From Dryococelus australis (Eukaryota; Arthropoda; Insecta; Phasmatodea; Phasmatidae): a stretch of 64,000 bases of DNA. The notes beneath the pieces are model-generated. The model made no database searches and was not told the origin of the DNA. It worked only from the letters and a program-made list of their open reading frames with translations. Positions 7,334 to 59,030 of this stretch are shown here, piece after piece (position 1 is the first letter of the stretch; the number at the start of each line of letters is the position of its first letter). The DNA is taken from the NCBI GenBank assembly GCA_029891345.1, contig CM057000.1, positions 123,055,838-123,119,837 on the forward strand, in the 5' to 3' direction. A program made the translations under genes and the position numbers.

Positions 7334-7477
7334 CAAGACCTTGTTGCCACCGACCGTCTCCTTGATGTGCCTGATGCACTCCAGCTCTCGAGACTGCATG
7401 GTGAAATTGCCCGTGCAGCCACCAATATCGAACAAGAAATTCTTGATCATCACCTTACCACTCGGCGTCAGGTCCAC
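7334..7477 (-). CDS. GMPS: GMP synthase coding exon E (end of GATase, linker to ATP-PPase)
   Basis: A 144-base, 48-codon phase 0-0 exon for residues 186-233, starting VDLTPSGKVMIKNFLFDI and ending ETVGGNKVL. It covers the last amidotransferase strand and the helix (TMQSRELECIRHIKE) leading into the ATP-pyrophosphatase domain. The acceptor is GTGTGCAG and the donor GTGAGT. By family homology the next exon should start just before the PP-loop. It is not visible in the remaining 7.3 kb to the left, so the following intron is longer than that. Confidence 0.95.
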
Positions 7478-12781: not shown

Positions 12782-14365
12782 TGGTCCATTCCCGACTGGA
12801 AGCGACTTATGAAAAACAACCTTTGAAAAAACACTCTAGGCATAATATGTCAACCTATTTTTTTCAATAGCCTGCATTCCACAAATATATAACACTATGG
12901 TTAACTTTACAGTACTGTATTATTGAATAAATTAAACTTTACCTTAATATCTTTCTCCCCCTCTTCCCTCTGTATCTATTTCACACTCGGGAAGTTTCAC
13001 TTCACTAGTATGCGAAAATTGTACCTGTTTCATACTTATTACAGTAAAATAATGATTTTTGAATATGTAATTTACAACTGAAAAGAGATTTTAATGTTTG
13101 TATCCTTATTTTAATATATTTAGATATGATGGCAGGGCAGAAACAAAGTAAAGTTGGCAGACTGACTAGCCATGACATGGTGTGTTGCTGTTTTACCAAG
13201 CGAAGCATAAATTATACTTACTCCGTAAAACTACTTCAAATTACCACATCACGTTTGTAGATGTGTTATTTAAACGTACCTAAGCAAGTTATTATATTGT
13301 GATCAATCTGTGTTTCCGCGGCAGTAATAAATATACTGTTACGGTGTGTTTCGTTAACCGCTGCATGTGAAATAGAGTGGCATGGCTGTTTGGTAGTAGT
13401 TAAGCTGGGTTCTGTGTATATGTGATTTCAAATATTTGATGTGAACTATGTATACGTTGTAAATGTGAACTGTTTTTATGACTAAGATATTTACTTTCCT
13501 CCACGTATCTTTATTTATCACAACATTGTACCTTTGCCCTGGGTGTTTGAAACACAGTCATGTAACGCGATTTACCACCAATCCCAACAAAATAATCAAG
13601 CAGAGACCCAATAAATCTCAATAAACATAATACACTGTAAATAGAAATACATATAAATATGAGTGGAATAAAAGTTACGGTAGGCTTATTTGAGTGCATA
13701 TTCACCGCTATATTTTAAGTTTCTATAACAAAAAATGAGCGACAAGTTGCTTGCTTGACTTTAATGTCACATTTTCGTTGGACTGTCTATTCCTTCATTA
13801 TTTGAACTGAGGCCGTCCTTTTAAAGAAATAACCCAACACATATCAATAACAAAAAGTTAAATACTACAGTTCATTACCCCGCAGTTGTAACAGTGTTTA
13901 ACACAGTCGCGGCAAAATAGTAACATGCATTACGTGTAATGTGCTATATTGTGAAAATCAAATATTTTAATGTAACATAACCATAAAAACTATCGTTAAT
14001 TCAGGCGTTTTCAAAACGTCGTAAAGCTGACCTAAATAATGTTATAGGCCGAAACTGTGAATATTCGTACAAAATTGTTTTTGAAATAGACCTAAGACAC
14101 AATTCTTTGAAAAGCTGTAAACAGTAAACAACACATTTGACAGGTATAAAAGTAGAAATCACATTTCAATGTTTATTTTTAGGTGTAGCGAAAGTATACG
14201 AACACATCTACACAAACAATGGCATGTAAACATTGATTTTGACAGATGCTACATGGCAGTCGCATGGCAATCTTTGTTTACATTTGGCGGAAGGATACGA
14301 AACGGGCCTGCAAGTAGATATTTAGCAGAGTTCCGAGAAAGTTGCCTCCAATGGGGAATGGATTA
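12782..14365 (+). mobile_element. R1-A: TA-target DNA transposon, non-autonomous (Tc1/mariner/pogo-like)
   Basis: The ends are inverted repeats of about 26 bp (left TGGTCCATTCCCGACTGG..., right complement TAATCCATTCCCCATTGG...), bounded by TA at 12780-12781 and 14366-14367. The unoccupied R2 copy at 32.7-33.4 kb shows the same junction with a single TA, which proves the insertion. Two more copies are at 38624-40503 (opposite orientation) and 48666-51672. Conserved short frames (near 13511-13705 minus, 14169-14396 plus) occur in two copies but match no transposase. They probably reflect sequence similarity, not genes. Confidence 0.85.
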
Positions 14366-14385
14366 TAGACAACTGTATACCTGTG

Positions 14386-18000: not shown

Positions 18001-18570
18001 GTCAAAAAATATGCTGATGTAATGAAAAACGATTCCTTTTGTAATAGGTATGCTACTTTTAAATATTCTTTATGCCTGGATTAATTTTCAGTTTGTTATT
18101 TAGATGAGTTTAGCATGAGTTTAGCATTAAGGGCAATATGTGTACTTACATGGTAAAAAACTATGACAATCTAGCTTGTAAAAATGTATGTAGTTAATAA
18201 ATTTAAAAAATATATATATTTGGTGCAATATGTACTTGTCAAAAAAACACTTTGAATTTATACTTGATTCAAATTCGTGAATATTATAACAAATTCGCTC
18301 CGAAATGAAATTTCCAGCTTTGCACACCCCTAAGACTAAACAACAGGAACAAATCATAGAAAAACAGTTGGGCCGAATAAATGTTGGATATCTGATTGGT
18401 GGATGCGGTAAATTAATGCTTTACGAGATTGAGCCCGCCAGGTCATTTAACAGTGTGTTAAATAAATTATGCTTCTAAAGATAATATGTGAATAATAATC
18501 TGCAAATAATTTTTGGATGCTGCCGATGGCTGTGTTAATCTGTATTGGCATCGATATCAGCCTATCCCTA
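15058..18570. mobile_element. R3 copy 2, hAT-like repeat interrupted by a second element
   Basis: The segments 15058-16080 and 18344-18570 align, in reverse orientation, with R3 copy 1 at 36907-38140. The ends are TAGAGATGGGC at the left and ...GCCTATCCCTA at the right (complement TAGGGATAGGC), so they are inverted. The octamers flanking it agree only at 5 of 8 positions, so its own duplication is not demonstrated. No transposase frame. Confidence 0.65.
16081..18335. mobile_element. hAT-like non-autonomous element nested in R3
   Basis: It begins TAGGGGTGGACGAAAC and ends GCTTTGCACACCCCTAAGA, giving inverted TAGGGGTG ends. It is flanked by GTAAACAA (16073-16080) and CTAAACAA (18336-18343). 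The unoccupied R3 copy carries this octamer once (complement TTGTTTAC at 37141-37148). Subterminal TTCGAA-like words recur at the left end. About 2.25 kb, AT-rich, no transposase seen. Confidence 0.75.
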
Positions 18571-18926
18571 CCTTTGTGTATATCTCATTAGAAAAAACAG
18601 ACAGACTCCTCCCCATCCAACTGTGGGTCAGCGTAAAATGAAAAATCCTTCAAGACTACAGTATCCCTACCCTCCCATTGTGAACCACACCAAATTAAGG
18701 TCAAGCGACCCCAAGACCAACCATCGCAAAACAGCTTGTCCTTCACTTTTCAGTTTTCTCCGGCATTTCTTGCTTTCCCTTCTTTTGCATAATATTTGTA
18801 GCCAATATACGAGCTGCATTGAAATTTTTCATTTCTGATGTGTACTATTAATAAATTGTTCACAAAATCAAATCGAAAACATATTCAATTGAAGTCCAAT
18901 AAAACTAACTGTAATAAATAGTCAAC

Positions 18927-19621
18927 AAAAATATATACAGGACAGGAATCCAAATTCTCACAGTCTAGTACTTGTCGATAGGCACACACACACAAAGTAG
19001 GATGAGACAGCTTTTTCACACGGTTGTGCAATCGCAAGTTTTGCTAGCTAAGCCAACTTCATCAGGTGGCTAGTTGTAGGACACTGCAGTATGGTGGAAG
19101 GGCGCAGCTAGTAGTAAACCTATAGCGGCAGGGTGGCCAATTAGGGTGAGGCGAGAAAATTGAAAAATTGCAGGTATAGTAAAGAGCTGTGATTATCTTA
19201 AATTGAGGCCAGGCGGCTGTCTGGATTTAGTTATAAATTGGTGAGCTAATTCCCAGCTTCCCACCTTCAAGCAATAGCTCAGAATTCACGACGCTGGGAA
19301 TTAGCTCACCAATTTATAACTCAATCCAGGCAGCCGCCTGGCCTCAATATCAGATAAACACAGCTCCTTACTATACCTGCAATTTTTCAATTTTCCCGCC
19401 CCACTCTAGTTCACCACCCGGCCGCTAGGTTTACTACTAACAGTGCCCTTCCACCATACTGCAGTGTCCTTCAACTCGCAGACTGATGAAGCTGGCTTAG
19501 CCAGTGAAATGTCACAATTGCGCAACCACATGAAAAAGGTGTCCTCATCCTACTTTGCACGTGTGCCTATCAACAAATACTAGACTGTGAGTACATGGAT
19601 TCCTGTCCTTTATATATTTTT
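18927..19621. mobile_element. Long inverted repeat, possibly Penelope-like terminal sequences in tail-to-tail arrangement
   Basis: The arms 18927-19257 and 19293-19621 are imperfect inverted copies of about 330 bp with a loop of about 35 bases. Outer ends are AAAAATATATA / TATATATTTTT and the inner junction is AATTCCCAGC / GCTGGGAATT. Each arm carries a CTGATGA...GAAA-type core (hammerhead-like), a feature reported for Penelope-like retroelement terminal repeats. The Penelope assignment is inference; no RT or GIY-YIG coding sequence is present. A foldback DNA element is the alternative. Confidence 0.6.
19483..19513 (+). ncRNA. Hammerhead-ribozyme-like motif
   Basis: Right arm of the inverted repeat: CTGATGA (19483-19489), a stem II of CTGGC/GCCAG closed by a TTA loop, GAAA (19506-19509), then TGTC. 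This order is that of a type I hammerhead with a minimal helix III. The left arm (complement of 19034-19065) has CTGATGA but AAAA in place of GAAA, so it is probably dead. Helix I pairing is poor in both arms. Activity is doubtful; the motif looks like a decayed descendant. Confidence 0.4.
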
Positions 19622-19649
19622 AGTAGCCTAGCGGCCTATTTGCAATCTT

Positions 19650-19726
19650 AACTAACAAGTAGTCAACAAATTGTAGTCAACAAACAGAAGTCAAGAAACA
19701 GTAGTTAACAAACAGTAGTCAAAACC
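19650..19726 (+). repeat. Short tandem array, unit about 15 bases
   Basis: Five imperfect repeats of AACAAACAGTAGTC type directly beside the inverted repeat. A related AGTCAACAAA word also precedes the left arm at 18920, so this may be the expanded target sequence. Confidence 0.7.
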
Positions 19727-20229
19727 ATGGTAAATCTAAAAATTTGCACAAAACCAAATTGTAATAAGCTAAGAGAGAAACTATATCCACAAGCAAAAGA
19801 GATCACAATGTCAAGACAAGCTCATGAAAACAGCAGTCACGTCGTGCACTGCAACACAATGAAAGCTGATGAGGGGGTGGGCAGTCAATACATAATGGAT
19901 ATTGTTGACAGCATAAGGGGATGGTATCTATCTTTAAATATGTGCTTCTTGCAATACCATTTGGCCAAGAGAAATGCAATGCAGTAACCAAAAAAAATGC
20001 AACACTCTTATTTTTTGACAGGTTTCCTTCAAAATTTCTACTTTAACCAGAATTTTTCATGGTTCTTCAAAATCAGATTGTAAAAGAGTGGTGGTTGTAA
20101 TAAATAGGGTCGCAACAGTGAGATTTTCCTGTAATAAGTGGCAACTTTGCAGGCACACAACTGCCCCCGTCTAAGAGGTCCAGACTGGGTAGCTGTGCAG
20201 CAAAGGCGACAACAGGCGTTCAAGCATAC

Positions 20230-20383
20230 CTCTGGGTGAAACTGCACGCCATAGAGCCGCTGTTTGTCATTGGCAATGGCAGCCGTGAAGGTGCTGGAGG
20301 CAGCTACTGTGCGGAAAGTGTCTGCCACTCTCTCCACGCTGTCTCCGTGTGTCAGCAGAACCTTCTGCACTTTCTCCAGGCCC
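20230..20383 (-). CDS. GMPS: GMP synthase coding exon D (His/Glu of the triad)
   Basis: A 154-base exon. One base completes Lys134, then residues 135-185 run from GLEKVQKVLLTHGDSVERVA to YGVQFHPE. His183 and Glu185 in QFHPE complete the Cys-His-Glu triad. LLTHGDSV is the conserved loop preceding the last strands of the amidotransferase domain. The acceptor is GTGTGTTAG and the donor is GTATGC directly after the Glu codon (phase 0). Confidence 0.95.
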
Positions 20384-21790
20384 CTAACACACACAGCTGC
20401 CATCTTCATTCAACTGATCGCATCTATAACCAACTACCATCAAACACATTCTACACTACAGGAAAAAAACACTTAAGAAGTTGCACAGTGATGAACTGTG
20501 CAGCTCAGAATGGGAAAATGATATTGATTCTGCAGTTCTACCAATATTCGCAAGATATCAAAAACAATGGTAAGCAATGTTAACATGGAGATATGCCGAT
20601 TATATGACAAAATCTTGCTCTCATTACAGGAGCCAAGAAATATTCAAGACGCCCATTTAGGCACAGTGGTTGCTTGTGCTAGTACAAGGTGATGAGACTG
20701 CTAACTGAACACCCCACGCTATCCCATCCATGTAGACCAAGTTCTAACCAGCCTGATTTATGTTTTTGGTAGGGCCATGAAAGGAGTGTACACGCAATAA
20801 TGTCTTGTTGATGTCAGATTGAGAGGCAGAGTTGGCATCGATGATATACTAAAGCCATGACCTGTAGTAGATCAGCTGGCAAGCTGACTGCTTGTACATT
20901 GTACACTGACATGCATTAAGGTGTTGTATTTTTATCCAACAACTAGGGGTTTAGACCGTGACCGTGTTTTAAGTATGGCCACGTGCCTAGAATATTTATA
21001 ATTTTGAAAAATTTGGTTATCATACAAAGACTGAAAATTTTTTTTTGATATTTCTCTATACGCTGGGCCACTGTGGCCCCACTTGAAATAGTGCTAGCCA
21101 CTTTACCACTGTGGCCCCACTTCATTAACTCAACATTAAAGCGAGACATTTAGAGTAAACAAAAATGATATTCCATTACCTTCATATCTCTATGCAATAA
21201 TCTCTATGCATTAATGCAAAATTTTCATAGGGGAAAAAATTAGTTTTTAGGGTTAAAGGTAATGATTTCATAATCTGATCTTGCTGAAATTCGAACTTGA
21301 TATGTATTTGACCCTGAGGATTCACTCTGCAAAATTTGAAGAACTTTTGCTGAGTTTCAAGGGACGAGAAGAGTTAAAGAGAGGCAGACAGACAGAGATT
21401 GTTCTATTACATAATAGGATGTTATTATGTATAGACACAAATCAATCTACTCATTACAACAAAGAAACAGAAGGAATCACACAACTTGACACCAGTTGAG
21501 CAACATGGTGATTGTGCACTAGCCCAGTATCCCTCTAGACTATGGAAACAGAATCTCCTTGAGGATTTTTAAGGTCCGTATGGGCTAACGCGTTTGAACC
21601 CTGAATGTGTCTAGCCCTAGACCAGAACATATAGCTTGGCACTGAGGATTATATTATCCCTTTTCTGGCCCCCCAGTGATTGGGCATTTAAGAAGTACAC
21701 AGCTATGCACAGTCAGTGATGTTACGTTAAATTTTAGGGGACAAAATAACTGAAGTGTAAAATAATTGGTACCATTTTTAGAGGATTCAG
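20384..21790. other. Intronic sequence, nothing recognised
   Basis: Intron C-D next to exon D. It holds two copies of CCACTGTGGCCCCACTT (21067-21083 and 21107-21123); otherwise no gene or element ends were found. Confidence 0.4.
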
Positions 21791-38140: not shown

Positions 38141-38623
38141 ACTAAATAAAAAAATTATTTTTTAATATAGACAACTTGAAAAGAATTATTTGCAAATTCA
38201 ATTGCCTTTTTCAGTTAGCATTTTCAAAAAACTGATAACCAATATTAAGTTAACAGTTAACTGTTAAGCTAATGTTCAAAGAAACAATAGAAGATATCTT
38301 GTTTACAAAATAAAATCTAAATAATCGCAAAATCATTAACAAAACCATTTGGTGGGCATCAATTAATATTATGAAATTATTTTTTTACAAACTTTTCAAT
38401 TTACATTTAAAATTAAATTTAAAAAATTAACAATTCTAGCCAAACTAATTCAGGTATGGAAAAATATCATTCACTAGCTAATTAAAATCTATAGAAATTT
38501 TTTTTAACGTATATATAATTATTTTGCCATAATTGTAAGTAAAAGTAAGAAAATTCTCGATATTTGATTATATGTGTAATACTTACACTTTAAGAATAAA
38601 TTTTTTTCGTTACGCAACTACTA

Positions 38624-40503
38624 CAGTCCATTCCCCATTGGAAGCAACTTTCTTGGAGCCCTGCTAAATATCTACTTGCAGGCCCGTTCCATATCCTTCC
38701 GCCAAATGTAAACAAAGATTGCCATGTGACTGCCATGTAGCATCTGTCAAAATCAATGTTTACATGCCATTGTGTGTGTAGATGTGTTCGTATACTTTCG
38801 CTACACCTAAAAATAAACATTGAAATGTGATTTCTACTTTTATACCTGTCAAATGTGTTGTTTACTGTTTACAGCTTTTCAAAGAATTGTGTCTTAGGTC
38901 TATTTCAAAAACAATTTTGTACGAATATTCACAGTTTCGGCCTATAACATTATTTAGGTCAGCTTTATGACCTTTTAAAAACGCTTGAATTAACTATAGT
39001 TCTTATGGTTACGTTACATTAACATATTTGTTTTCTAGGACATAGCACATTACATGTAATGCACATTAATATTTTGCTACGACTGTGTTAAACACTGTTA
39101 CAACTGCAGGGTACTGAACTGCAGTATTTAACTTTTTGTTATTGATATGTGTTGGGTTATTTCTTTAAAAGGACAGCCTCAGTCGAATAACGAAGGAATA
39201 GAAAGTCGAATAAAAAAGTGACATTAAAATCAAGCACGGAACTCGTGTTGCTGATTTTTTGTTATAGAAACTTAAAATATAGCTGTGTACATGAACTCAA
39301 ATAAGCCTACCGTAACTTTTATTCCACTCATATTTATATGTACTGCTACTTACAGTGTATTATGTTTATTGAGATTTATTGGGGCTCGGCTTGGTTATTT
39401 TGTTGGGAATGGTGGCAAATCACGTTATATGACTGTGTTTCAAACACCAAGGGCAAAGGTACAACATTGTGATTAATAAAGATACGTGGATGAAAATATA
39501 TATCGTAGTCATAAAAACAGTTCACATTTACAACGTATACATAGTTCACATCAAATATTTGAAATCATACACATACAGATCCAGTGTAACTATCACCAAA
39601 AAGCCACGAAACACACCGTAACAGTATATTTATTACTGCCGCAGAAACACAGATTGATCACAACATCGTAACTTGTCAAGGTAGGTTTAAAAAACACAAC
39701 GTCTATAAACGTGACGTGGTAATTTGAAGTATTTTTCGGAGTAAGTATAATTTACGCTTCGTTTGGTAAAACAGCAATACGCCATGTCATGGTTCACCAC
39801 GTCTGCCAATTTCACTTTGTTTCTGCCCCGCCATCATATCTAAATATATTAAAATAAGTATTGAAACATTACAATCGCTTTTCAGTTGTAAATTACAGAT
39901 TCAAAAATCATTATTTTGCTGTAATAAGTATGAAATACGCTGCAATTGAAAACATGTACAACTTTACCGCAAACTAGCGAAGTGAAACTTCCCAAGTGTG
40001 AAAGAGACAAAGACAGAGAGAGAGAGCGACAAAGCTCACTCAGCAGACAGTTGCTTCAAAGTGTCTCTCGCTTGATAAAACAATACCGCACCATTACGGC
40101 CTACTCACAATATTTTACGCTGTTATTTTAAACTGTAAAAATGACATATGTTACCATTGGGGGTACCTAAATATTTCAATAGGCACCGTTTAATTTACAA
40201 ATAGTATATTTAAAAAATAGGTTAAAATAATATTTTAACTATGAACTACTTCTTACCGGCGATTGTCAACACGTAGCTGCTCTCGCTGTTGTTAATTCAT
40301 ATTTAAAAAGAAAGAAATATTACAAGTTATAGAAGATATTATTAAGGTAACATTTCATTTATTCAATAATACAGTACTTTAAAGTTAACCATAGTGTTAT
40401 ATATTTGTGGAATACAGGTTATTGGAAAAACAGGTTGACATGCTTTGCCTAGTGTTTTTTCAAAGGTTGATTTTCATAAGTTGCTTCCAATCGGGATGGA
40501 CTA
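38624..40503 (-). mobile_element. R1-B: second copy of the TA-target transposon
   Basis: Inverted ends CAGTCCATTCCCCATTGGAA and the complement of TTCCAATCGGGATGGACTA, with TA at 38622-38623 and 40504-40505. In opposite orientation to R1-A and about 300 bases longer, mainly an interior stretch near 39960-40370 missing from R1-A. Confidence 0.85.
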
Positions 40504-41849: not shown

Positions 41850-44530
41850 GTTACATTACACAGCTCTCTTTGTAGATAATTTTTGTAGTTTCAACAGTAG
41901 CTCTCGTTTCAGATTTCTTCTTCTCACATTTAGCCTCTTGTGCAGATTTGATATGTGGACGTTCGCGTATAGGCATATTACTGGTATGTCTAGAGAAAAT
42001 AATTTCTGGCAAAAGGGAATCGTAGAAGAAAGTTAGAAACTTGGTAACCATTATATTTTCCCAAAAGTTCTTATCTCATTGAATTTTCAGAGATAACATG
42101 CCATCTGGAGTCCATACAACGAAATTGCATGTCTTCTGCCGTGAAATATGGAGGACTCCCTGTACTTGGTACATGTAGTTATGGCTCAGTTTTAACTGTG
42201 GCTTTCCATATTTCATTTCTAGGTACTTTATTTTACCTTTTGCAAGTGCATCTAATGGTGGTATAGATATAGCAGAGGATGGGCACGTTACTTCAATTAT
42301 TTGGTCATCGTCTATGAAGACATCTGGCGATGCTCCTAAAAAAGGATATTCTTTGTCCACAATTAAACCACTATGCCTAGATTTTCTCTTTCAAACTGAG
42401 CAATCGCCACTGACTTTCGGTGCCTCAATTTGTACTAGAATTCCCCTTGAAGACTTCATACCAAATTTCCTTTACAATATTTGCACAAGAAGTTGTAGCC
42501 TTCATTTTACAAAACTTCGCAAAGAACAATGATGTTATGCGTTTGCTACGATCTACTTTCCACTCGTGTGAAGAGTTCTTTCTCTTGTTCTTTTCTCTAT
42601 CTGTTCTCAAGTTTCATCACATCTAAAAGTTGTTTTTTGGCATTTTTTCATACATAGCTTGTGACATGTCTGGTGTGCTTAGAGAAACATTTGGACCATA
42701 ATAACTATCTAAGTTCTTTTTATCCCTGTGTTCAACTCTCTTTCTGCCGTGGAATATCAAACGGCACCATCTCAGTCTTTCTGCCATTTTTATCGCCTTC
42801 CGATAACTGTATTTGTGTGGACTAAAGGATTTTTTTTTAACAGATGGCATGGATAATTCTGTGCATCTCTCCACCTGAGTTGACAAATACCACACCTTGT
42901 TTTATAGGAATTAGAGAAGGAAAAATTGATACGCTTTCCTCCAACAAACTTCGCTAAAACAGAATTGTAAGTCTCTGCCACATTGTTGTCAACATTCAAA
43001 ATGAGACTGCTGGCGTTATTTGCCACTCTTTAATCGTAAAGCAATAATTCTTTTAGCAATCCTGCCTTCTCCATTTCATTTACCAAATTAACTTCTCCGG
43101 GTTTTGGGAGTCCATTACAAAACAACTGTCTTTCAGATGTTTTGAATGGTCACCAAGGATGTAGAATGGACTCTTCAAGAAATCTTTTTCTAAGTTTCTC
43201 AATCAACAAGTAGTATTTGACTTCACTCTGCCTCTTTCTGTATTTAATTGCAGACACGACAGCTGTTCTTAGTCTCATTATACAATCTTTAAAAGCTGAA
43301 CGCAGTTCATAGCTTCACAGTTTGGTGTTGCTGCATAAATCTGGTACTTTACTAACATAATTCCGACAAATGTGATTTCGGCACTACTTTTTCTGCCAGT
43401 TGTGTTGTCCCACTGGGCATAGCATCTTTTAGCGTTCTGTGCAGATGCTGTCGCCGTCTGCGATCAAACGGCGATAAACAAGGCCATGCACGCCAATGCT
43501 CTGCAAAAATCCTTCAACAATGACATCTTGCCCCATTGATGACCCAGAGCAGTTCTTGGCACATTTGTGAGATGCAACAGTATTCTTTGCATCATGCAAT
43601 TGGAACATGTCATTAAAATTACAATAAAATGACAAATCATAACAGCACTAAATAAACAGTATTGAAGTGAAGACAAAACATTCTGTCCATACAGACAACG
43701 CTATTTTCTTTACTGCTAAGCAAAAAATATATTAGTGACTTAAGTAAAAAATGATGTTATTACATGGCTCGAGAAAAACTAATTGTTATAACTGACAACT
43801 GTATTTCTGTCAACAGCAACAACCAATAGATTTGTTACCAATAAATAAACAAGTTTCGTGTGGTCTATATTGACGAAATTAATTTTCAAGATTATTTTAC
43901 AGGGATATGTGTACAAAATCACGCAATGATTACTTACGATGCCTCACAGCGAATTGTATTTGGGTTTGTATGAACGTTTTGACCAAGCTCCATCTGCTAC
44001 AATGATCATCATTGGGTGGCCTTCATTATCTACGTCACCAGGTTCAATTGCTAGCTTTGCTCCTCCTTGTGCAGCTTCGCACGTAGTTCCCATGCTGAGT
44101 TTTTAATCGTATGAGAAATACGATCATGATGAACTTTCCAGGTTTCCTTAGAAATGCAAGTCATATTCAGTGCTCCACATAACTCTTTGAGTTGTGAAAT
44201 GGAAATTACCCCAAATACTGCAGCTGAGTTGACATTCAGCAGCTCCGCAATTTTTTCTGCACGTTCAGTTCGCAGAGTATCAGTAATATTACAGAACTTA
44301 CATTTTATTGTTATAAGGCTGCAAAATCTTAAACGTGGGTCATTGATTATACTCATATCACTGAAAGTACAGTTGAATGGCTCATGTTGACTAATCTGTT
44401 TGATTTTGTCAATTAAATATTGAATATTTACCATTTTTCTGCCTTCTAACATAATGTCTGCTGTGGTTGTTAATGGTTCATTATTATCTTGTTCATACTT
44501 TGAGTTGTAAATTCCTGCTCATTGGCAGTT
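41850..44530 (-). pseudogene. Mutator-like transposase fused to YqaJ-type nuclease, relic
   Basis: Minus-strand blocks in family order: N-terminal segment 44452-44051 (NIQYLIDKIKQISQHEPFNC ... LKELCGALNMTCISKETW); DDE start IVADGAWSKRSY near 43990 after a frameshift; CAKNCSGSSMGQDVIVEGFL and YRRLIADGDS at 43635-43429; NNVAETYNSVLAKFVGGKRI at 43026-42790; YYGPNV near 42700; nuclease part WKVDRSKRITSLFF at 42580 and FLGASPDVF at about 42330; C-terminal LLPEIIFSRHTSNMPIRE near 42000. A GTAAGT at about 43937 may be an ancient donor. Several stops and shifts. In the nuclease core the usual E-x-K appears as IIEVTCP, with Thr where Lys is expected. I know this pairing from arthropod mobile-element proteins; termini were not found. 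Confidence 0.75.
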
Positions 44531-48660: not shown

Positions 48661-49745
48661 GTCTATAGGCTGTTCACGACTGGAACAGACATTTCTCAAG
48701 CCCTGCTAAATTTCTACTTTTGGTTATTGATTACGTATCCCCATGCTACACCTAAACATTAACACTGCCATGTGGCCTACGTTTATAACAAATGGGTTGT
48801 TTACCGTTTATAGCTGTTCAAAAAATAATGTTATAATTATGATGGAAAAACCAGTAGTATTTAATCTCTTGTTATTGATGTGTGTTGTGTTATTTCGTTA
48901 AAAGGACGGCCTTAGTTGGAATAAATATTAAAATGAAGGAGCAACCAGTCGAATGAAAAAAAAAAAAGGAATTTTAAGCACGCAACTCGTGTTGCTAATT
49001 TTTGTGTACATAGCAGCGACAAACTTAAAAGATAGTGGTGAATATGCACGCAAATAAACCTACCGTATATTTTATTCCGCTCATATACGTTTACATAGGT
49101 AATTAGATTTCACTAGGTTTATTTAATTACTTATTTACAATTTCTAATTTCTAGTTGGGTGTATGAATTTGTTGAGATTGTGGCAAATATTCAGATCACA
49201 AAAGAGTAAGCACATTACACAACTGTGTTTCAAACACCTAGGGCGAAGTTATGTTGTAATAAATAGACATATAATTAACTTCGTAATAAACACAGTTCAT
49301 GGATAAAACATCAATTTTGCACGTCCAATATTTGCAATCACACACACAATGTTAATGACCGCGAAGCAGCCATGCCCGCTCACATGTAGCAGTTGACACA
49401 CGTAATATTATATTTATTCCTGCCGTGGTAACACAGATTTAGCACGTCATAACTTGCGTAGGTAAGTTTAACAAACATAACTTGTACACACTTGTTGTGG
49501 TAATTTGAAGTATTTTTCGGAGCTAGCAAAATTAACAACTTGTGCTCATATAAAAAAAAAAGCCAAGTCTTATATCCAATCACCACGTCTGTCAACCTTA
49601 ACATTTGCAACTCTCCTGCCATCACACTTAAGTATATTAAATACGTATTCAAACATTAAAACCTTTGCAGTTGTAAATTACAAATTCAAAAATCATTATT
49701 TTGTTGAAATAAGTATGAAATATGCCAACATTTTAAACATGTATA

Positions 49746-51540
49746 CATGTCTTCCGTGTTTTTTTTTGTTTTGTGCATGTGTTTAGTTTACTGTGCAGCA
49801 GTACGTCTTCTAAAAGGAAACGTGTTGTATCGTTGGCAGACAAAATAAAAATCCTTGAACAATTAGACAAAAGAGTGAGTGGGAAGCAGTTAGCTAAGAT
49901 GTTTAGCATGGGAACATCAACAATTTCAGACATAAAAAAAACCAAGTCCTCAAATTTAAACTTTATGCCTGTCCTTGAGCATGAAAATGGAAGTTCGTCG
50001 AGAAAAGTGATGCAAACAGCAGAAAACAAAGAGCTTGAAGAGGCCGTGTTCAAGTGGTTTTTGCAGCAGCGAGCATTAGGAAACCCTCTTTCAGGGCCAA
50101 TTATTTGCCAAAAAGCAAAACTTTTAGCTGACAAAATCGATAGTTTGTCTTCATTTAAAGCGAGCAATGGCTGGCTACAGAATTTCAAGGCAATGCATGG
50201 TATTCGTGAGTTGGATTTAAGTGGCGAGAAACTATCAGCAGACCCAAAAGCAGCAGAAAATTTTATTGAAAAATTCAAAATTGAAGCAGAATCTAATGAC
50301 CCTGAATTTTTATACAACGCAGATGAGACAGGCCTTATTTGGAAGGCTATGCCTAAAACAACTTTAACTTATAAAAGGGAAACTAGTGCTTCTGGTCATA
50401 AGGTTAGTAAAGCCCGTGTTACCATACTGAACTGTGTTAACTCTACAGGAAACCACAAAATGTCCATTCTGTTGATAGGCAAATCGAAAAACCCCTGGCT
50501 TTCAAAAATGTGAAAAAACTTCCCTTCTTTTACAAGAATCAACCAAAGGTCTGGATGACTGCTGCTTTGTTTACTGAATGGTATAATTCAATTTTCATAT
50601 GTGAAGTAAAAAAATACGAAAAGGCAATAGTAAAAGAAGGCAGTGAGGTGATGTTAATTCTGGACCCACCCACCCCAAAGAAAGCCTTCTTGTCAGAGAA
50701 GATGAATGTTTCAAAACACTCTTCCTGCCGCCAAACGTAATGAGTTTGCTGCAGCCAATGGACCAATCGGTTATCGAAACTATGAAGCGACATTAAAGAA
50801 GAAAACTGTTGACGAAGCTTTTGATAGAAGATGAAAATGAAGAAGGCAGTGTGGATCATCACCAAAAATTGGATTTAAAAGACTGCTCTTACATGGTGGT
50901 GGAAACATGGAATTAAGTGAAAACAACCACATTAAAAAGAGCTTGGAACAAATTGAAAGGCATTTCAACCAAGGAGGTAGAGAAAGAGAAAAAATTCCCG
51001 GATGTTCCGAGTGCAGTGCAGAGGATGTAGACGAGCGGCTTGCTTATGATTCTTCGGACCCTGGATTCCAAATTCTCAGTGACGATGGACTCATTCAAGT
51101 GTGAGAGAAGAAACTGATGACCAGGAAAATGACATTGCTACTGAATCAAATGTGGGACTGTCAGCTGGTGTCGAGTTTACGTGTCTTGACACTGTGCTAA
51201 CATGGATGGAACGCCAGCTCGAGTGTGACCATACACAGCTGCTCACCATCAAGCGGATGCGAGACTTGGCTGCATGAAAACGATTTAAGACACCAAAACA
51301 AATGACTGACAGATATGTTAAAGAACTGCTGCTTTATGTAAATACAGTGCTTTACAAAATTTAAACAACATTGTTTTGTAGTCATTAAATTAATAGTATG
51401 TACGTACTACAGCATACAAAATTTAGCTTTTTTTTTTTTTTTAAGAAATTACCTTTTTTCCATATTTACCCAATATCCGGATATTTGTTTATCCGAATTG
51501 GGTCCGGTCCCCATTAATCCGGATAATTGGAGTTCCACTG
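49746..51540 (+). mobile_element. Pogo/Tigger-like transposon, left end missing
   Basis: The right end reads ...GGATAATTGGAGTTCCACTG followed by TA (51541-51542). Its complement CAGTGGAACTCCAATTATCC is a classic Tigger-type terminus, preceded by further TCCGGATA words. No matching left terminus exists: R1-C sequence passes directly into DNA just upstream of the transposase near 49746, so the left end and adjoining R1 interior were lost together. Confidence 0.85.
49773..51278 (+). pseudogene. Pogo/Tigger/jerky-family transposase relic
   Basis: First frame, 246 codons (49773-50513). Residues about 12-60 form a psq-type HTH (KRKRVVSLADKIKILEQLDK ... GTSTISDIKK). Residues about 75-150 form a CENP-B-type HTH (GPIICQKAKLLADKI ... 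GWLQNFKAMHGI). The DDE core begins with FLYNADETGLIWKAMP (Asp at 50322). A frameshift near 50500 leads to the second Asp in VMLILD (50663), and another frame gives LPPNVMSLLQPMDQ (third Asp at 50761). The C-terminal acidic tail continues to a stop near 51277. Stops and shifts make it inactive. The usual N-A-P-x-H after the second Asp is reduced to PPT. The true start is unclear because the 5' end is lost. Confidence 0.85.
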
Positions 51541-51674: not shown

Positions 51675-53355
51675 GTTCCCCCCTCAGACTGAGGAAGAAG
51701 TGCACACAGATTACTTGGATTGCTGGATTGGTGGGATTGATAACTGTCTGCGTGGGGGTCCTGTCAGATCTAGCATCTGCCGGTAAATCTTGGGTGGTGC
51801 TGGCTTGCAAGGCAGTGTGTCCAGACTCGGATCGGGGCAAAGCTAATGGCAGCAGAGTGAGGGTCAGATGGTCAGACTTTGGGTGGGGTACGTGGAAGGG
51901 GGGAGATGGCTCGTGGAATGGACTTTTAGTCCAGCAGAGGTTCCTCTAATCTATAGCCTCTCGAATTTGTGTTTGATTCATGACTGGTTGCTCAGGAATA
52001 GTCAAAGCTCTGTTGCAAGTAACCTCTTCCCTTAAGTCAGCATAAACCCTGACAGCCCTAGTTTCCAACTCGGTTTTTTCCCTTGGCCAGAGAACCAATG
52101 CTTCCTTAATCACCTTCCACTGCCTAATTCGGTGGCATGGCATGGGGATAAGAGTAATATGAGAAGTAGGTGTCCTGTGGGCATGGGCATAGTGAGGTGA
52201 TTTGGGCGTGCCTCCCAGAGAGCCGTGACCTCTCTCACAATGCCAATGCAACCTGTGTCTCCCTCGTAGAAAAACCGGTTCAGCAGGGTTACAGTTTATA
52301 GCCTGAGTGCCTCAAAAGGTTCAGTGTGTTTCCCTAGCAGGGCCATATTCAACTCCTAACAGGAGAACAATCGGTTGGTGAGGCTACTGCCGTGGGACAT
52401 CTGCTCCCTGTTAGGGTGGAAGAAGGTTCAAACACTCCTTCCCTGAAGCAACTGTGTTAGCAGACAGGGCTGGACTACCACCATAACACCATCAACAGAA
52501 CTACTATCCACAAAGTCTGAAGAGCAAAAGGGGAGGGTTAGAACAGCATGCCCAGATCCTGAAGTAACCACGGAGATCACTTAGCATGATGTCGTAATGG
52601 TGGGCCAAAGCAAGTCTAAGATCCCGTAGTTCACTGCACCCTCTTGTAGACAGAGTAAACAGCAAAGTGGCTGAATAATTTCCAGAAGGGGATGGTGCCG
52701 CAGGACACCGGATGACTGCCTAATTAGGGGGTTGGGCAGTCTCATATACGCTCCGAATGGTAGCAAGCTAGAGAGGTGAGGTGTGGAGGGAGAGAGAGCA
52801 AGACACCCTTTAGCATGTACCATACCACCTGTGATGGCAAGGTGGGCTGTCCGTATTACTTGTGACGCCTTTGCCAGAAGGGGTGACGAGACATCATTAG
52901 AGGCACGATTTTGTGGTAAAACACAATAAAACAAAACAATACAGAGATAAAAGTTAAAATGTGAAATAACATGAAATACGGACAAATGCATGATATCTCA
53001 CGAAATTAGCTTTCTCTGCAAGAAATTATCGCTTCTCCTATGTTATATACACAAATTTACTTTGGCACTGTAAAAATCTAGAAACATACGAGTGTCTGCA
53101 ATATCGAAAAATACTCTAGATGAAAAAATCCTCAATTTCGTTTTAAGACAATTTTTAAATTTCGGAAATCATAGTTCTGCACGCAACACACACACGTAAA
53201 TACGTTAAGTATTTTTTTCTTGCATAACACAATATAAACACCACATATTCCAAAGATTACACAAACCAATAAAACATGCACTCTGAAATAAACTACAGTA
53301 GTTTGACAACAAACTGCCTCCAAGCGCTAGTAACAATGATGCGAAGTGAACACAC
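51675..53355. other. GC-richer intron block, no assigned product
   Basis: Minus frames 52251-51946 and 52991-52581 are open for 101 and 136 codons but carry no motif I recognise. They may be decayed retroelement sequence continuing the gag-protease relic to the right, which I cannot show. Confidence 0.3.
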
Positions 53356-53357
53356 AT

Positions 53358-53960
53358 AATAAAAATTGTCAGAAAAGTAGTTTGATTAATGCTGTATATG
53401 AAAGAAGAATGCATATATTTTGTTACATTATAAAATACTTTACTAAAATATACTTTTTAAATGTAAAAAATTAATTGATTGATAGAGCCCACATTTTTAT
53501 CAAAATTTTGAATGCTTCAGAATGCAGAATTTGAAAGAAAATCTTCAAAAAAAATTGTAATATTTACTGTAATCATATGTAATAAAATCATAGTAACAAT
53601 GTATAATGATTTTATAATCAACTTTATTTATGTCAGTTTCAGTCATAAATGTTTGTGACAAATGGACGCACATAAAACCAATTATAAAATTATTTTCTAC
53701 ATTATTGTTACAATTTTCTTACACAGAATTATAGTAAACATTATGACAATATTCCATAAGGAAGATTCTTGCAAATTTTGTTTTCTGAAGCATCTGGAAT
53801 GGAAATATGCTTAAATTTTGTTAAAAAAATACAGTATTTTAATCAATTATTTTAAATTTAAAAAGTACATTTTAATAAAATATTTTATAATGTTGCAAAA
53901 TATATACGTTCTTCTTCCATATACAGCATAAATAACATTTTTCTGACAATTTTTATGAAG
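53358..53960. repeat. Long AT-rich palindrome (arms about 280 bases)
   Basis: ATAAAAATTGTCAG at the left is matched by CTGACAATTTTTAT at the right, and similarity continues inward (GCTGTATATGAAAGAAGAA / complement of TTCTTCTTCCATATACAGC; ATTATAAAATAC; ATGCTTCAGAA) almost to a centre near 53660. Consistent with a foldback or MITE-type element; no target duplication found. Confidence 0.75.
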
Positions 53961-54299
53961 TCTGTACTAATTTTTTTAGGAGTTCTTAATGTTGTATAGT
54001 CGGGTGCAGTGCTCCACAGGCAGTTGCTTTACTTCAACCTTAAAAGGTGTGTACTTTACAAATAGTGTATCAGAACTAAATTTTATAACATTTTATGTTT
54101 AAACTATTTCTTAATAGTAGTTGCCAATGAAGCACTGCTCTCAGCATTATTACATACTGATTAAGAAGTAGGATCACAGCAGCATCTGAATTTTACAGCC
54201 TGGGTTGGCTCGTGTGGGTTTGCATCCACAAGACTTGTCTCAGTTTCTAGCCCACCTATATGCTATTTTCACTATAATCCATAACCACTTCCTGGCTAA

Positions 54300-56959: not shown

Positions 56960-59030
56960 AATAAATAAAAAAAATTACTTGGGACATGTAGTGTATGCCC
57001 ATGGGATTGCAACAGACCCCGAGAAGACCAAAGCAATAAGAAATTGGCCAACACCAACTGACAAAACTGAAGTTCAGAGTTTTCTGGGATTATATGTCTA
57101 CTACCGTCAATTTGTACCTGGGTTTGCCACGATTACCAAACCACTACATGAACTGACTTAAGGCATAAAGGAAATTTCATTGGACCACTGAATGTGAAGA
57201 TGCTTTAAGTAAACTAAAGAAAATTCTGATATATCCTCCATACCTGGATTTCCCAAAAAGTGAAGGTATATTTATTTTGGATACTGATGTTAGTGATGTA
57301 TAAACTGAAGCTGTGCTATCTCAGGTGCAAGATGGGAAGGAAACACCACTAGAATACTTCAGTAATGTATTGCATAAGCCTGAGAGAAATTATGTTACAT
57401 GCAGGGAGCTTCTTGCCATGGTGAAGGTAATTTCACACTTACACCTGTATCTTTACGGCAGATATTTTATTGTAAGTACCAACCATGCTTCAGTATACTG
57501 GCTACAAAATGTTAAGAATCCCGAAGGTAAAATAGCCCGGTGGATACAGCATCTTCAAGAATATGACTTTGAAATACAACACCAATCTGGCTGCCTTCAC
57601 AGCAATGCAGATTCACTTTCTGGGAGGCCATGCAAGCAATTTTGTCGTCATTGTGAACATCAGGAAGTAAAGAGTGGTGAATTACTGAAGGTACGGACGT
57701 GATGGGACACCTACCTGGAGTGATGAGTGTATTCGGAAAGCCATCTGAATGATCCCACTTTGCAGCCATTATTAAAGTGGAAAGAAGCTGGCTGTCTGCC
57801 AAAATAGGAAGAAATATATAGTCTGAGCTCAGCAGTCAAAGTATACTGGGCACAGTGGAATTCCCTCATACTGAAGAATCGTGCACTTTACAGAAACTGG
57901 GAAAGTAATGGTGGAAAACAGACACATTTACAGTTGGTCCTTCCAGAATGCAGGGTTCCTGAAGTCTTAAAATAACTACATAATGCGGCAGCCAATGGAA
58001 ACTTTGGTGTTAACAAGACACCCGACAGAATTAGACAGATTCTACTGGCTTCACTGTAGGGAGGATATTGAGAAATCATGCAGATTGTGTGACACCTGCA
58101 CTGTGAGGAAGGGCACAAGGACCAGAGGACAAGGTTACGTCCAGAAATACAATGTTGGAGCCCCATTCAAAAGGATGGCAGTAGACATTTTGGGTCCTTT
58201 GCCTGTCACAGAGAGAGGTAATCAGTATCTACTGGTGGCTCAAGAATATTTTACTAAGTGGCCTGAGGTCATTCCCTCCTAAACCAGGAAGCACGTACAG
58301 TAGCTGAGACACTCATAGAACATGTATTTTCAAGATTAGGGGTGCGACTAGAACTCATTCTGATCAGGGAAGAAACTTTGAAGCTGTGGTCTTCCAGAAG
58401 GTAACAAAAATTCTGGGCATGAAAAAGATTAGCACTACAGCCTTACACCCTCAGTCTGATGGAATGGTGGAGAGGCTTAACCGCACAACTGAGCAGTACC
58501 TGTCGATCTTTGTGGCAGACAACCAAAAAGGATTGGGATTCAAAGGTGTCATTGTTTCTTCTTGCTTACCACTTAGCAGTTCATGATTCCACAAGGGTAA
58601 CACCATCGAGGATGCTGTTTGGAAGAGAACTACACCTTCCCAGTGACCTCGTGTTTGGCCAAATGACAAATGAGGAAGCTGCAGCACCTGATTATGCCAG
58701 TGAATTACATAACAGACTTGTTGGCATTCATGATTTTGCTCGACAGCACCTCAGAATAAATAGTGACAAGATGAAGGTGCGTTATGAGAGGAGAATGTTG
58801 GGCTAGATATTTCAAGAAGAACTGGTGTGGCTGTACAACAGAGGAGAGGAGGGCACTGCCCGAAGATACAGAAATGTTGGGAAAGCCCCTACAGGATTCT
58901 GAAGAAAATCAAAGATGTGGTCTTTAAGATTCGTCATCAAGGCTCTCTGGTGAAGTCGAAGGTTGTCCACTTTGACCATCTGGCACTCTACGATGGTCCC
59001 GATGCCGCAGAGTTTGTTAGGGACCAATAG
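56960..59030 (+). pseudogene. Gypsy-like pol relic: RT end, RNase H, integrase
   Basis: Blocks in the standard Ty3/gypsy order: RT thumb and connection (GHVVYAHGIATDPEKTKAIR ... FLGLYVYYRQF) at 56979-57158; RNase H (LDTDVSDV, then PLEYFSNVLHKPERNYVTCR) to 57702; integrase zinc finger (YWLHCREDIEKSCRLCDTC) and core (MAVDILGPLP) at 57983-58282; core end (HPQSDGMVERLNRT) at about 58450; and a C-terminal module (CWESPYRILKKI) to 59027. Stops, frameshifts and a lost integrase stretch mean it is dead. Gag, protease and the RT catalytic palm are absent, so the copy is 5'-truncated. Confidence 0.9.

What the first reader, a model, noticed from the sequence alone, without database searches (positions are those of the whole stretch)
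18927..19621. 330-bp-arm inverted repeat carrying hammerhead-like cores on both arms
The arms fold into a very long hairpin. Each contains CTGATGA, a stem and an AAA-type core in the right order. One keeps GAAA and a following TGTC, compatible with a minimal helix III. Penelope-like retroelements are known to carry hammerheads in their terminal repeats, often in complex orientations. The hairpin could also feed small-RNA pathways if transcribed with the gene.
Basis: partly seen in the sequence, partly recalled or inferred. Interest (0 to 1): 0.7.

Follow-up and report, generated by a model that had tools for sequence, protein, structure and literature searches.

The report
Inverted Penelope retroelement remnant in intron
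The long hairpin is an old double-ended copy of a Penelope-like retroelement sitting in an intron of what looks like an animal gene; it carries the worn-out remains of a hammerhead-type ribozyme, which is ordinary for such elements, although the way its two ends differ hints at how they insert.

Summary
The inverted repeat is real: arms 18927-19260 and 19290-19621, 86% identical. It is not a stand-alone hairpin gene. The window's own 3.4-Gb genome gives thousands of candidate relatives. In 34 of 40 fetched loci the arm runs upstream into coding remains of the GIY-YIG endonuclease of a Penelope-like element (PLE); in 11 of 40 reverse transcriptase is also present. The window copy is two 5'-truncated PLE 3' ends joined head to head, 3' ends outward, in an intron of GMP synthase, with an 8-11 bp putative target duplication.

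The family consensus has a minimal type-I hammerhead layout with no real helix III and one extra A before stem II. No Rfam hammerhead model rings in the sequences scanned, and both window copies fail the descriptor, so here the ribozyme is at most a relic.

One regularity is worth following. In 14 of 14 inverted pairs with standard ends, exactly one end carries a 34-nt "tail", like the tail known for PLEs. This suggests that each such insertion primes both target strands, one from each start site. It is a new member of a known kind.

The parts
18927..19656 (.). whole insertion: two PLE 3' ends joined head to head, 3' ends outward
18927..19258 (-). left unit (sense on - strand): last endonuclease codons, pseudo-LTR, hammerhead relic; untailed 3' end at 18927; junction edge approximate
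19259..19656 (+). right unit (sense on + strand): last endonuclease codons, pseudo-LTR, hammerhead relic, tailed 3' end; junction edge approximate
19623..19656 (+). 34-nt 'tail', by analogy the stretch between two reverse-transcription start sites; on the right end only
   Evidence: score 34 of 34 against the family tail, left end 6
18919..18929 (+). left copy of the putative target-site duplication TAGTCAAC(AAA); the last 3 bases overlap the element's A-run
   Evidence: (family D3); caveat: a 14-nt tandem repeat starts at the right flank
19660..19670 (+). right copy of the putative target-site duplication
19471..19525 (+). hammerhead relic, right unit: CTGATGA, 6-bp stem, GAAA, TGTC kept; helix I next to the core broken
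   Evidence: no Rfam hit
19020..19077 (-). hammerhead relic, left unit: CTGATGA kept, GAAA changed to AAAA, cleavage-site region altered
19260..19357 (+). last codons and stop (19355-19357) of the PLE endonuclease ORF in the right unit
   Evidence: tblastn match 19220-19354, which runs across the junction; stop read from the sequence
19196..19255 (-). last codons of the endonuclease ORF in the left unit
   Evidence: tblastn
20231..20402 (-). GMP synthase exon (residues 144-200 of PDB chain 2vxo_A), upstream of the intron that holds the insertion; edges approximate
7334..7477 (-). next GMP synthase exon (residues 198-244 of 2vxo_A); the insertion lies in the roughly 12.7-kb intron between the two

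Best explanation
It is an old, defective insertion of an endonuclease-positive Penelope-like retroelement made of two 5'-truncated copies of the element's 3' end in opposite orientation. Inferred mechanism: the element's endonuclease made a staggered cut, and both target 3' ends primed reverse transcription on element RNA. One started at the inner site (untailed end, 18927) and one at the outer site 34 nt further on (tailed end, 19656). The two short cDNAs were then joined near 19258, and gap filling left the target duplication. The arms have since decayed separately. The family RNA carries a minimal, helix-III-less type-I hammerhead layout in its pseudo-LTR; in this copy both ribozymes are probably dead. 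The confidence given is for identity and anatomy; the two-sided priming step alone I put at about 0.6 (self-priming rival 0.3).
For: Thousands of candidate relatives in the same genome (3877 and 4086 first-look candidates, 40 scored each). Reverse transcriptase match in L018 (RVT_1, E 2.5e-4, 21.3 bits, under the 29.6 cut-off) and GIY-YIG in L026 (23.1 bits, cut-off 22.6). Endonuclease homology of 20 aa or more upstream of the terminal segment in 34 of 40 loci (these include L020 and L026, the sources of the queries); any endonuclease homology in 39 of 40 and in both window arms, RT in 11 of 40. In 14 of 14 inverted pairs one end is tailed and the other is not. Flanking repeats beat shuffles in 10 of those 14 pairs, window included. 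In print: a purified PLE protein cuts and extends both strands and starts reverse transcription at two adjacent internal sites that bound the 30-40 bp tail (PMC11167929, section 'Main text' read). Family hammerhead layout: descriptor hit in the consensus; 2 of 200,000 shuffles and 0 of 100,000 Markov sequences match; 8 of 31 arms match.
Against: Two-sided priming was not observed; self-priming would also give inverted arms (proposed for rotifer PLEs, PMC3846280, passages read), and PMC11167929 saw no difference in start site between top and bottom strands in bulk. The window's flanking repeat lies at a 14-nt tandem repeat, so it could pre-exist. No flanking repeat beat shuffles for L005, L009, L040 or L043. 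RVT_1 stays under its Pfam cut-off, and the L009 coding pieces gave no GIY-YIG hit (one none, one only weak unrelated matches). The window arms hold only endonuclease codons that belong to the terminal segment itself. The hammerhead has an extra A between CTGATGA and stem II, no Rfam support and no covariation: of 307 substitutions in 51 arms, 206 are CpG transitions, as in decay.
Confidence: 0.9

Rival explanations
1. Same element, but the inverted arms arose by self-priming: one cDNA (or an antisense template) folded back and copied itself, so both arms come from one molecule and one priming event.
For: Rotifer PLEs show palindromes at inverted junctions and their authors favour self-priming on an antisense template (PMC3846280, passages read). 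Arms of some pairs share private variants, most clearly L009 (21 shared non-CpG variants over 366 columns, 5.7 per 100; unrelated arms at most 1.4 per 100).
Against: It does not by itself explain why the tail is on exactly one end in 14 of 14 pairs. The window pair shares 4 variants over 331 columns (1.2 per 100), above the mean for unrelated arms (0.3) but within their range (up to 1.4); three pairs (L010, L012, L043) share none (12 pairs).
Confidence: 0.3
2. A foldback or MITE-type DNA transposon with long terminal inverted repeats.
For: Long inverted repeat with flanking direct repeats.
Against: Related arms continue into GIY-YIG and reverse-transcriptase coding sequence; the two ends differ by a 34-nt tail; 32 of the 48 insertions scored have no inverted second end in the stretch held.
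Confidence: 0.02
3. A working hammerhead pair or retrozyme: the arms are kept because they self-cleave or make circular RNA.
For: Core, stem II and GAAA survive in the right arm; the consensus fits a minimal hammerhead.
Against: The left arm has lost GAAA, the right arm has lost helix I next to the core, and neither meets the descriptor. No Rfam hit. No direct tandem array of the unit was seen in 18500-20100.
Confidence: 0.04
4. A host hairpin RNA (miRNA or siRNA source) kept by selection inside the GMPS intron.
For: Very stable fold; miRNA-model matches to the hairpin tip, best E 0.0011 but 29.9 bits against a gathering score of 76; it would be transcribed with the gene if the intron is.
Against: Between the arms the transitions split 9 G.U to 17 A.C on the + strand (17 to 9 on the gene strand), two-sided binomial 0.17, with 20 transversions, as expected from free decay.
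Confidence: 0.03

Closest known systems
Endonuclease-positive Penelope-like elements (Penelope/Poseidon type, e.g. PAc of Anolis; PMC11167929, section 'Main text' read)
   Same: RT plus GIY-YIG, pseudo-LTR with hammerhead layout, optional tail of 30-40 bp (here 34), AT-rich targets (79% A+T in the ten flanking words, trimmed by eye)
   Different: here only the 3' end, twice and inverted; the hammerhead has an extra A and, unlike PAc, no long frame starts at it (in the consensus the ATG of CTGATGA meets TAG after four codons)
Bdelloid rotifer Penelope copies with inverted pLTRs (PMC3846280, passages read)
   Same: inverted pLTRs, a 31-bp tail optionally on one of them, target duplications of 8-10 bp in some copies
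   Different: here the matched flanking words are 11-18 bp, some including bases of the element's ends, and the one-tail pattern is counted over 14 pairs
Small helix-III-less hammerheads of PLEs (reviewed in PMC6155905 and PMC7761336, passages read; two primary papers not held)
   Same: CUGAUGA, stem II, GAAA, then a cleavage triplet with no real helix III; the ACGU there could pair between two copies (inference)
   Different: one extra A before stem II; not found by Rfam

Membership tests
Penelope-like element (EN+) | telomerase-like reverse transcriptase in the same element | tested here: met
   L018:5290-6033 matches RVT_1 at E 2.5e-4, below the Pfam cut-off; RT homology in 11 of 40 loci; 153 genomic matches among 150 scored of 1540 candidates. 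That the RT is telomerase-like was not tested
Penelope-like element (EN+) | GIY-YIG endonuclease at the C-terminus | tested here: met
   L026 23.1 bits over the 22.6 cut-off, L020 22.2 just under; upstream of the terminal segment in 34 of 40 loci (not L003, L005, L023, L041, L042, L044); last codons in both window arms
Penelope-like element (EN+) | inverted pseudo-LTRs with an optional 30-40 bp tail | tested here: met
   34-nt tail; 14 of 14 scoreable inverted pairs have it on one end only
Penelope-like element (EN+) | target-site duplication | tested here: met
   10 of 14 pairs beat shuffles; the window's lies at a tandem repeat
Penelope-like element (EN+) | tandem direct copies (pLTR-ORF-pLTR) | tested here: inconclusive
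   no full tandem unit among the 48 insertions scored; L032 has a second partial end in the same orientation 2.8 kb away; only about 1-9 kb upstream was held
Type I hammerhead ribozyme | conserved core CUGANGA / stem II / GAAA / UH with helix I | tested here: inconclusive
   consensus fits if one extra nucleotide before stem II is allowed; window copies do not fit
Type I hammerhead ribozyme | match to a curated covariance model | tested here: not met
   genome-wide RF00163 search 0 matches, 73 of 375903 candidates scored, controls silent too
Type I hammerhead ribozyme | self-cleavage | not testable with these tools
   needs in vitro assay
DIRS element | tyrosine recombinase, no target duplication | tested here: not met
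   five coding pieces scanned gave RT or GIY-YIG or nothing relevant, no recombinase; flanking repeats present in 10 of 14 pairs
Foldback/MITE DNA transposon | transposase-coding relative with the same ends | tested here: not met
   relatives examined carry PLE coding sequence

The most novel reading that the evidence does not exclude
Every two-ended PLE insertion uses both reverse-transcription start sites, one per target strand, because a dimeric protein primes both strands on a single RNA whose two adjacent start sites cannot be shared. The one-tail rule in inverted pairs would then be the footprint of coupled, asymmetric double priming.
Probability: 0.3. Interest if true: 0.6.

Novelty: new member of a known kind. 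Interest (0 to 1): 0.35.

Why it matters
The locus itself is an ordinary transposon fossil. The genome around it holds thousands of candidate copies, many with sharp ends, so it can serve as a natural record of how PLEs insert, an open question. [quoted passage not shown] It also suggests that decay at CpG sites helps to hide PLE hammerheads from standard models.

Tried and rejected
Rejected: foldback DNA transposon or DIRS (coding relatives are PLE); selected hairpin RNA; live ribozyme in the window; Rfam miRNA matches at the hairpin tip, all far under their gathering scores. Led nowhere: scan of viral contigs for a 22-base piece of the arm (0 matches); genome-wide RF00163 search, uninformative because its controls were silent too; NCBIfam scan of two PLE pieces (nothing relevant); search for compensatory changes in the hammerhead among 51 arms and in four loci near more distant RT copies, where three (L054, L056, L057) proved to be the same or a close family, decayed, and L055 showed no arm; small-fragment folds, whose minimum-energy fold is not the hammerhead and is no better than shuffles (the L017 stretch was misplaced and starts inside the motif). 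Dropped before the 14-pair count: L039 (tailed; its other end starts 17 nt inside and has no tail), L021 (matches of 81% and 94% to the consensus, 3.4 kb apart, probably two insertions; also one tailed, one not), L025 (68% fragment 7.4 kb away; no tail scored at either), L032 (second hit in the same orientation). L018 has an inverted inner piece without an end.

Full report
Observation. The inverted repeat is real and far beyond chance. Arms 18927-19260 and 19290-19621 are 86% identical, and the RNA would fold into one long hairpin (-484.8 kcal/mol, 0 of 20 shuffles as good). CTGATGA occurs once per arm on opposite strands, as expected when the arms are copies of each other. Rfam finds no hammerhead in the window at gathering scores or around the repeat at E up to 10.

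What it belongs to. The window lies in an unnamed 3.4-Gb assembly, by its gene and repeats most likely an animal (inference; no taxon was given). There the repeat has thousands of candidate relatives (3877 first-look candidates, 40 scored; 4086 and 40 with another query). I fetched 45 further places and used two loci (L003, L005), so 47 loci plus the window were scored for their ends; 32 of these 48 show no inverted second end in the stretch held. For the 40 loci held, tblastn finds homology to the PLE endonuclease part in 39 (not L044) and to the reverse transcriptase in 11. Because the arm itself holds the last endonuclease codons, I recounted: 34 of 40 have 20 aa or more of endonuclease upstream of the terminal segment; L003, L005, L023, L041, L042 and L044 do not. 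The queries came from L018, L020 and L026, which are among the 40. Pfam calls GIY-YIG in L026 (23.1 bits, cut-off 22.6; L020 22.2, just under) and RVT_1 in L018 (21.3 bits, cut-off 29.6, E 2.5e-4); two pieces of L009 gave nothing relevant. A protein search with the RT piece lists 153 matches (150 of 1540 candidates scored). The arm is therefore the 3' end of an endonuclease-positive Penelope-like element: last codons of the endonuclease, stop (19355-19357 in the right unit), pseudo-LTR, then the end. Both window arms keep such codons.

Anatomy of the insertion. The window copy has two such 3' ends pointing outward, joined near 19258. L003 and L005 are two other compact palindromes. The right end carries a 34-nt extension (19623-19656, 34 of 34 to the family tail); the left end stops at the A-run at 18927. 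The sequence TAGTCAACAAA flanks both sides, but a 14-nt tandem repeat starts at the right flank, so this duplication is less certain than in other copies. The insertion lies in an intron of GMP synthase on the - strand, between exons matching residues 144-200 and 198-244 of PDB chain 2vxo_A; an earlier exon matches residues 32-74.

One tail per pair. I scored the tail at both ends of every inverted pair with standard termini: window, L003, L005, L009, L010, L011, L012, L026, L037, L040, L043, L046, L047, L050. In 14 of 14 exactly one end is tailed. If ends were independent the chance of this is at most 0.5 to the 14th, 6e-5. Selection: eleven of the pairs were in the list, whose query held only 3 bases of the tail; L009-L012 were picked because two inverted hits lay close. 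L037, L040 and L043 came only from the tail-containing query, which favours one tailed end but says nothing of the other. Left out: L039, L021, L025, L032, for reasons given under Tried and rejected. Flanking repeats beat shuffled flanks in 8 of 12 pairs and in both later ones, 10 of 14, so these are most simply single insertions. L039 showed none.

Mechanism. Shown in print: the Anolis PLE protein cleaves and extends both strands, and starts reverse transcription at two adjacent internal sites that bound the tail; in bulk the strands did not differ in start site (PMC11167929, section 'Main text' read). Noted in rotifers: a tail optionally at one of the inverted pLTRs, with self-priming proposed for the palindromes (PMC3846280, passages read). 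A curation guide mentions 5' truncation, inverted pLTRs and short 3' extensions of PLEs (PMC8969392, passages). Inferred here: each two-ended insertion primes both target strands and uses each start site once, and the short cDNAs are then joined. Whether both cDNAs come from one RNA is open. Among 12 pairs, the arms of L009 share 21 private non-CpG variants; the window pair shares 4 (1.2 per 100 columns, mean 0.3 and maximum 1.4 for unrelated arms), and three pairs none. A common source is thus clear only for L009.

Hammerhead. The consensus of the arms reads CGCCGC-CTGATGA-A-GCTGGC-TTA-GCCAGC-GAAAC-GTC-GCG-ATC-GCG: core, 6-bp stem II, GAAA, no real helix III, a cleavage triplet GUC, and a helix I of 3+3 bp with a bulge. 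A descriptor with one extra nucleotide allowed before stem II (added after seeing the sequence) hits the consensus. It hits 2 of 200,000 shuffles, 0 of 100,000 Markov sequences and 8 of 31 arms, neither window arm among them (some of the 31 are partial and lack the motif). Reviews describe PLE hammerheads as minimal forms lacking helix III (PMC6155905, passages; PMC7761336, passages); the two primary papers I asked for were not held. Against it: the extra A; no Rfam hammerhead match in the window, in nine loci examined (L003, L005, L007-L012, of which L007 and L008 are the places also held as L013 and L014; part of L017) or genome-wide (limited); folds of short stretches that do not show it; and no covariation in 51 arms, where 206 of 307 substitutions are CpG transitions. 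I hold the family hammerhead as likely, the window copies as dead.

Known or new. This is a new member of a known kind. Searches in the held library brought up the papers above, which have inverted pLTRs, tail and hammerheads of PLEs in print. In what I saw of PMC11167929 (main text) and PMC3846280 (passages) there was no count of tails per inverted pair; earlier primary work cited in their reference lists was not looked up, so I do not claim that the rule is unpublished.

Noticed in passing
window 53350-53965: A second AT-rich inverted repeat without detectable similarity to the first in the window self-comparison (71% between arms over 650 columns; arms 53385-53468 and 53850-53933 88% complementary).
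   Followed up: partly
window 49737-50513: Open frame with CENP-B_N, Tc5 DNA-binding and partial DDE_1 matches: a pogo/Tigger-type transposase piece (the type name is recalled); neighbouring 48854-49720 repeats at 13028-13868 and 39123-39958.
   Followed up: partly
window 57304-57699: LTR-retrotransposon remains: RNase H of a reverse transcriptase.
   Followed up: no
window 44054-44518: Mutator-like transposase fragment (PF20700).
   Followed up: no
window 12969-14368 and 38621-40013: Inverted pair of long repeats, 88% identical over 1.4 kb; family not identified.
   Followed up: no
window 19658-19722: 14-nt tandem repeat, 4.6 copies (AGTAGTCAACAAAC), right at the insertion site.
   Followed up: yes
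L009 1021-1480 and 7278-7737: A PLE pair whose arms are 97.6% identical to each other but about 9% from the family consensus: apparently a late copy of an already diverged source.
   Followed up: partly
window 19240-19300; L003, L005 centres: The three compact palindromes join within about 10-20 bp of the same place in the endonuclease end, with different exact junctions (read).
   Followed up: partly
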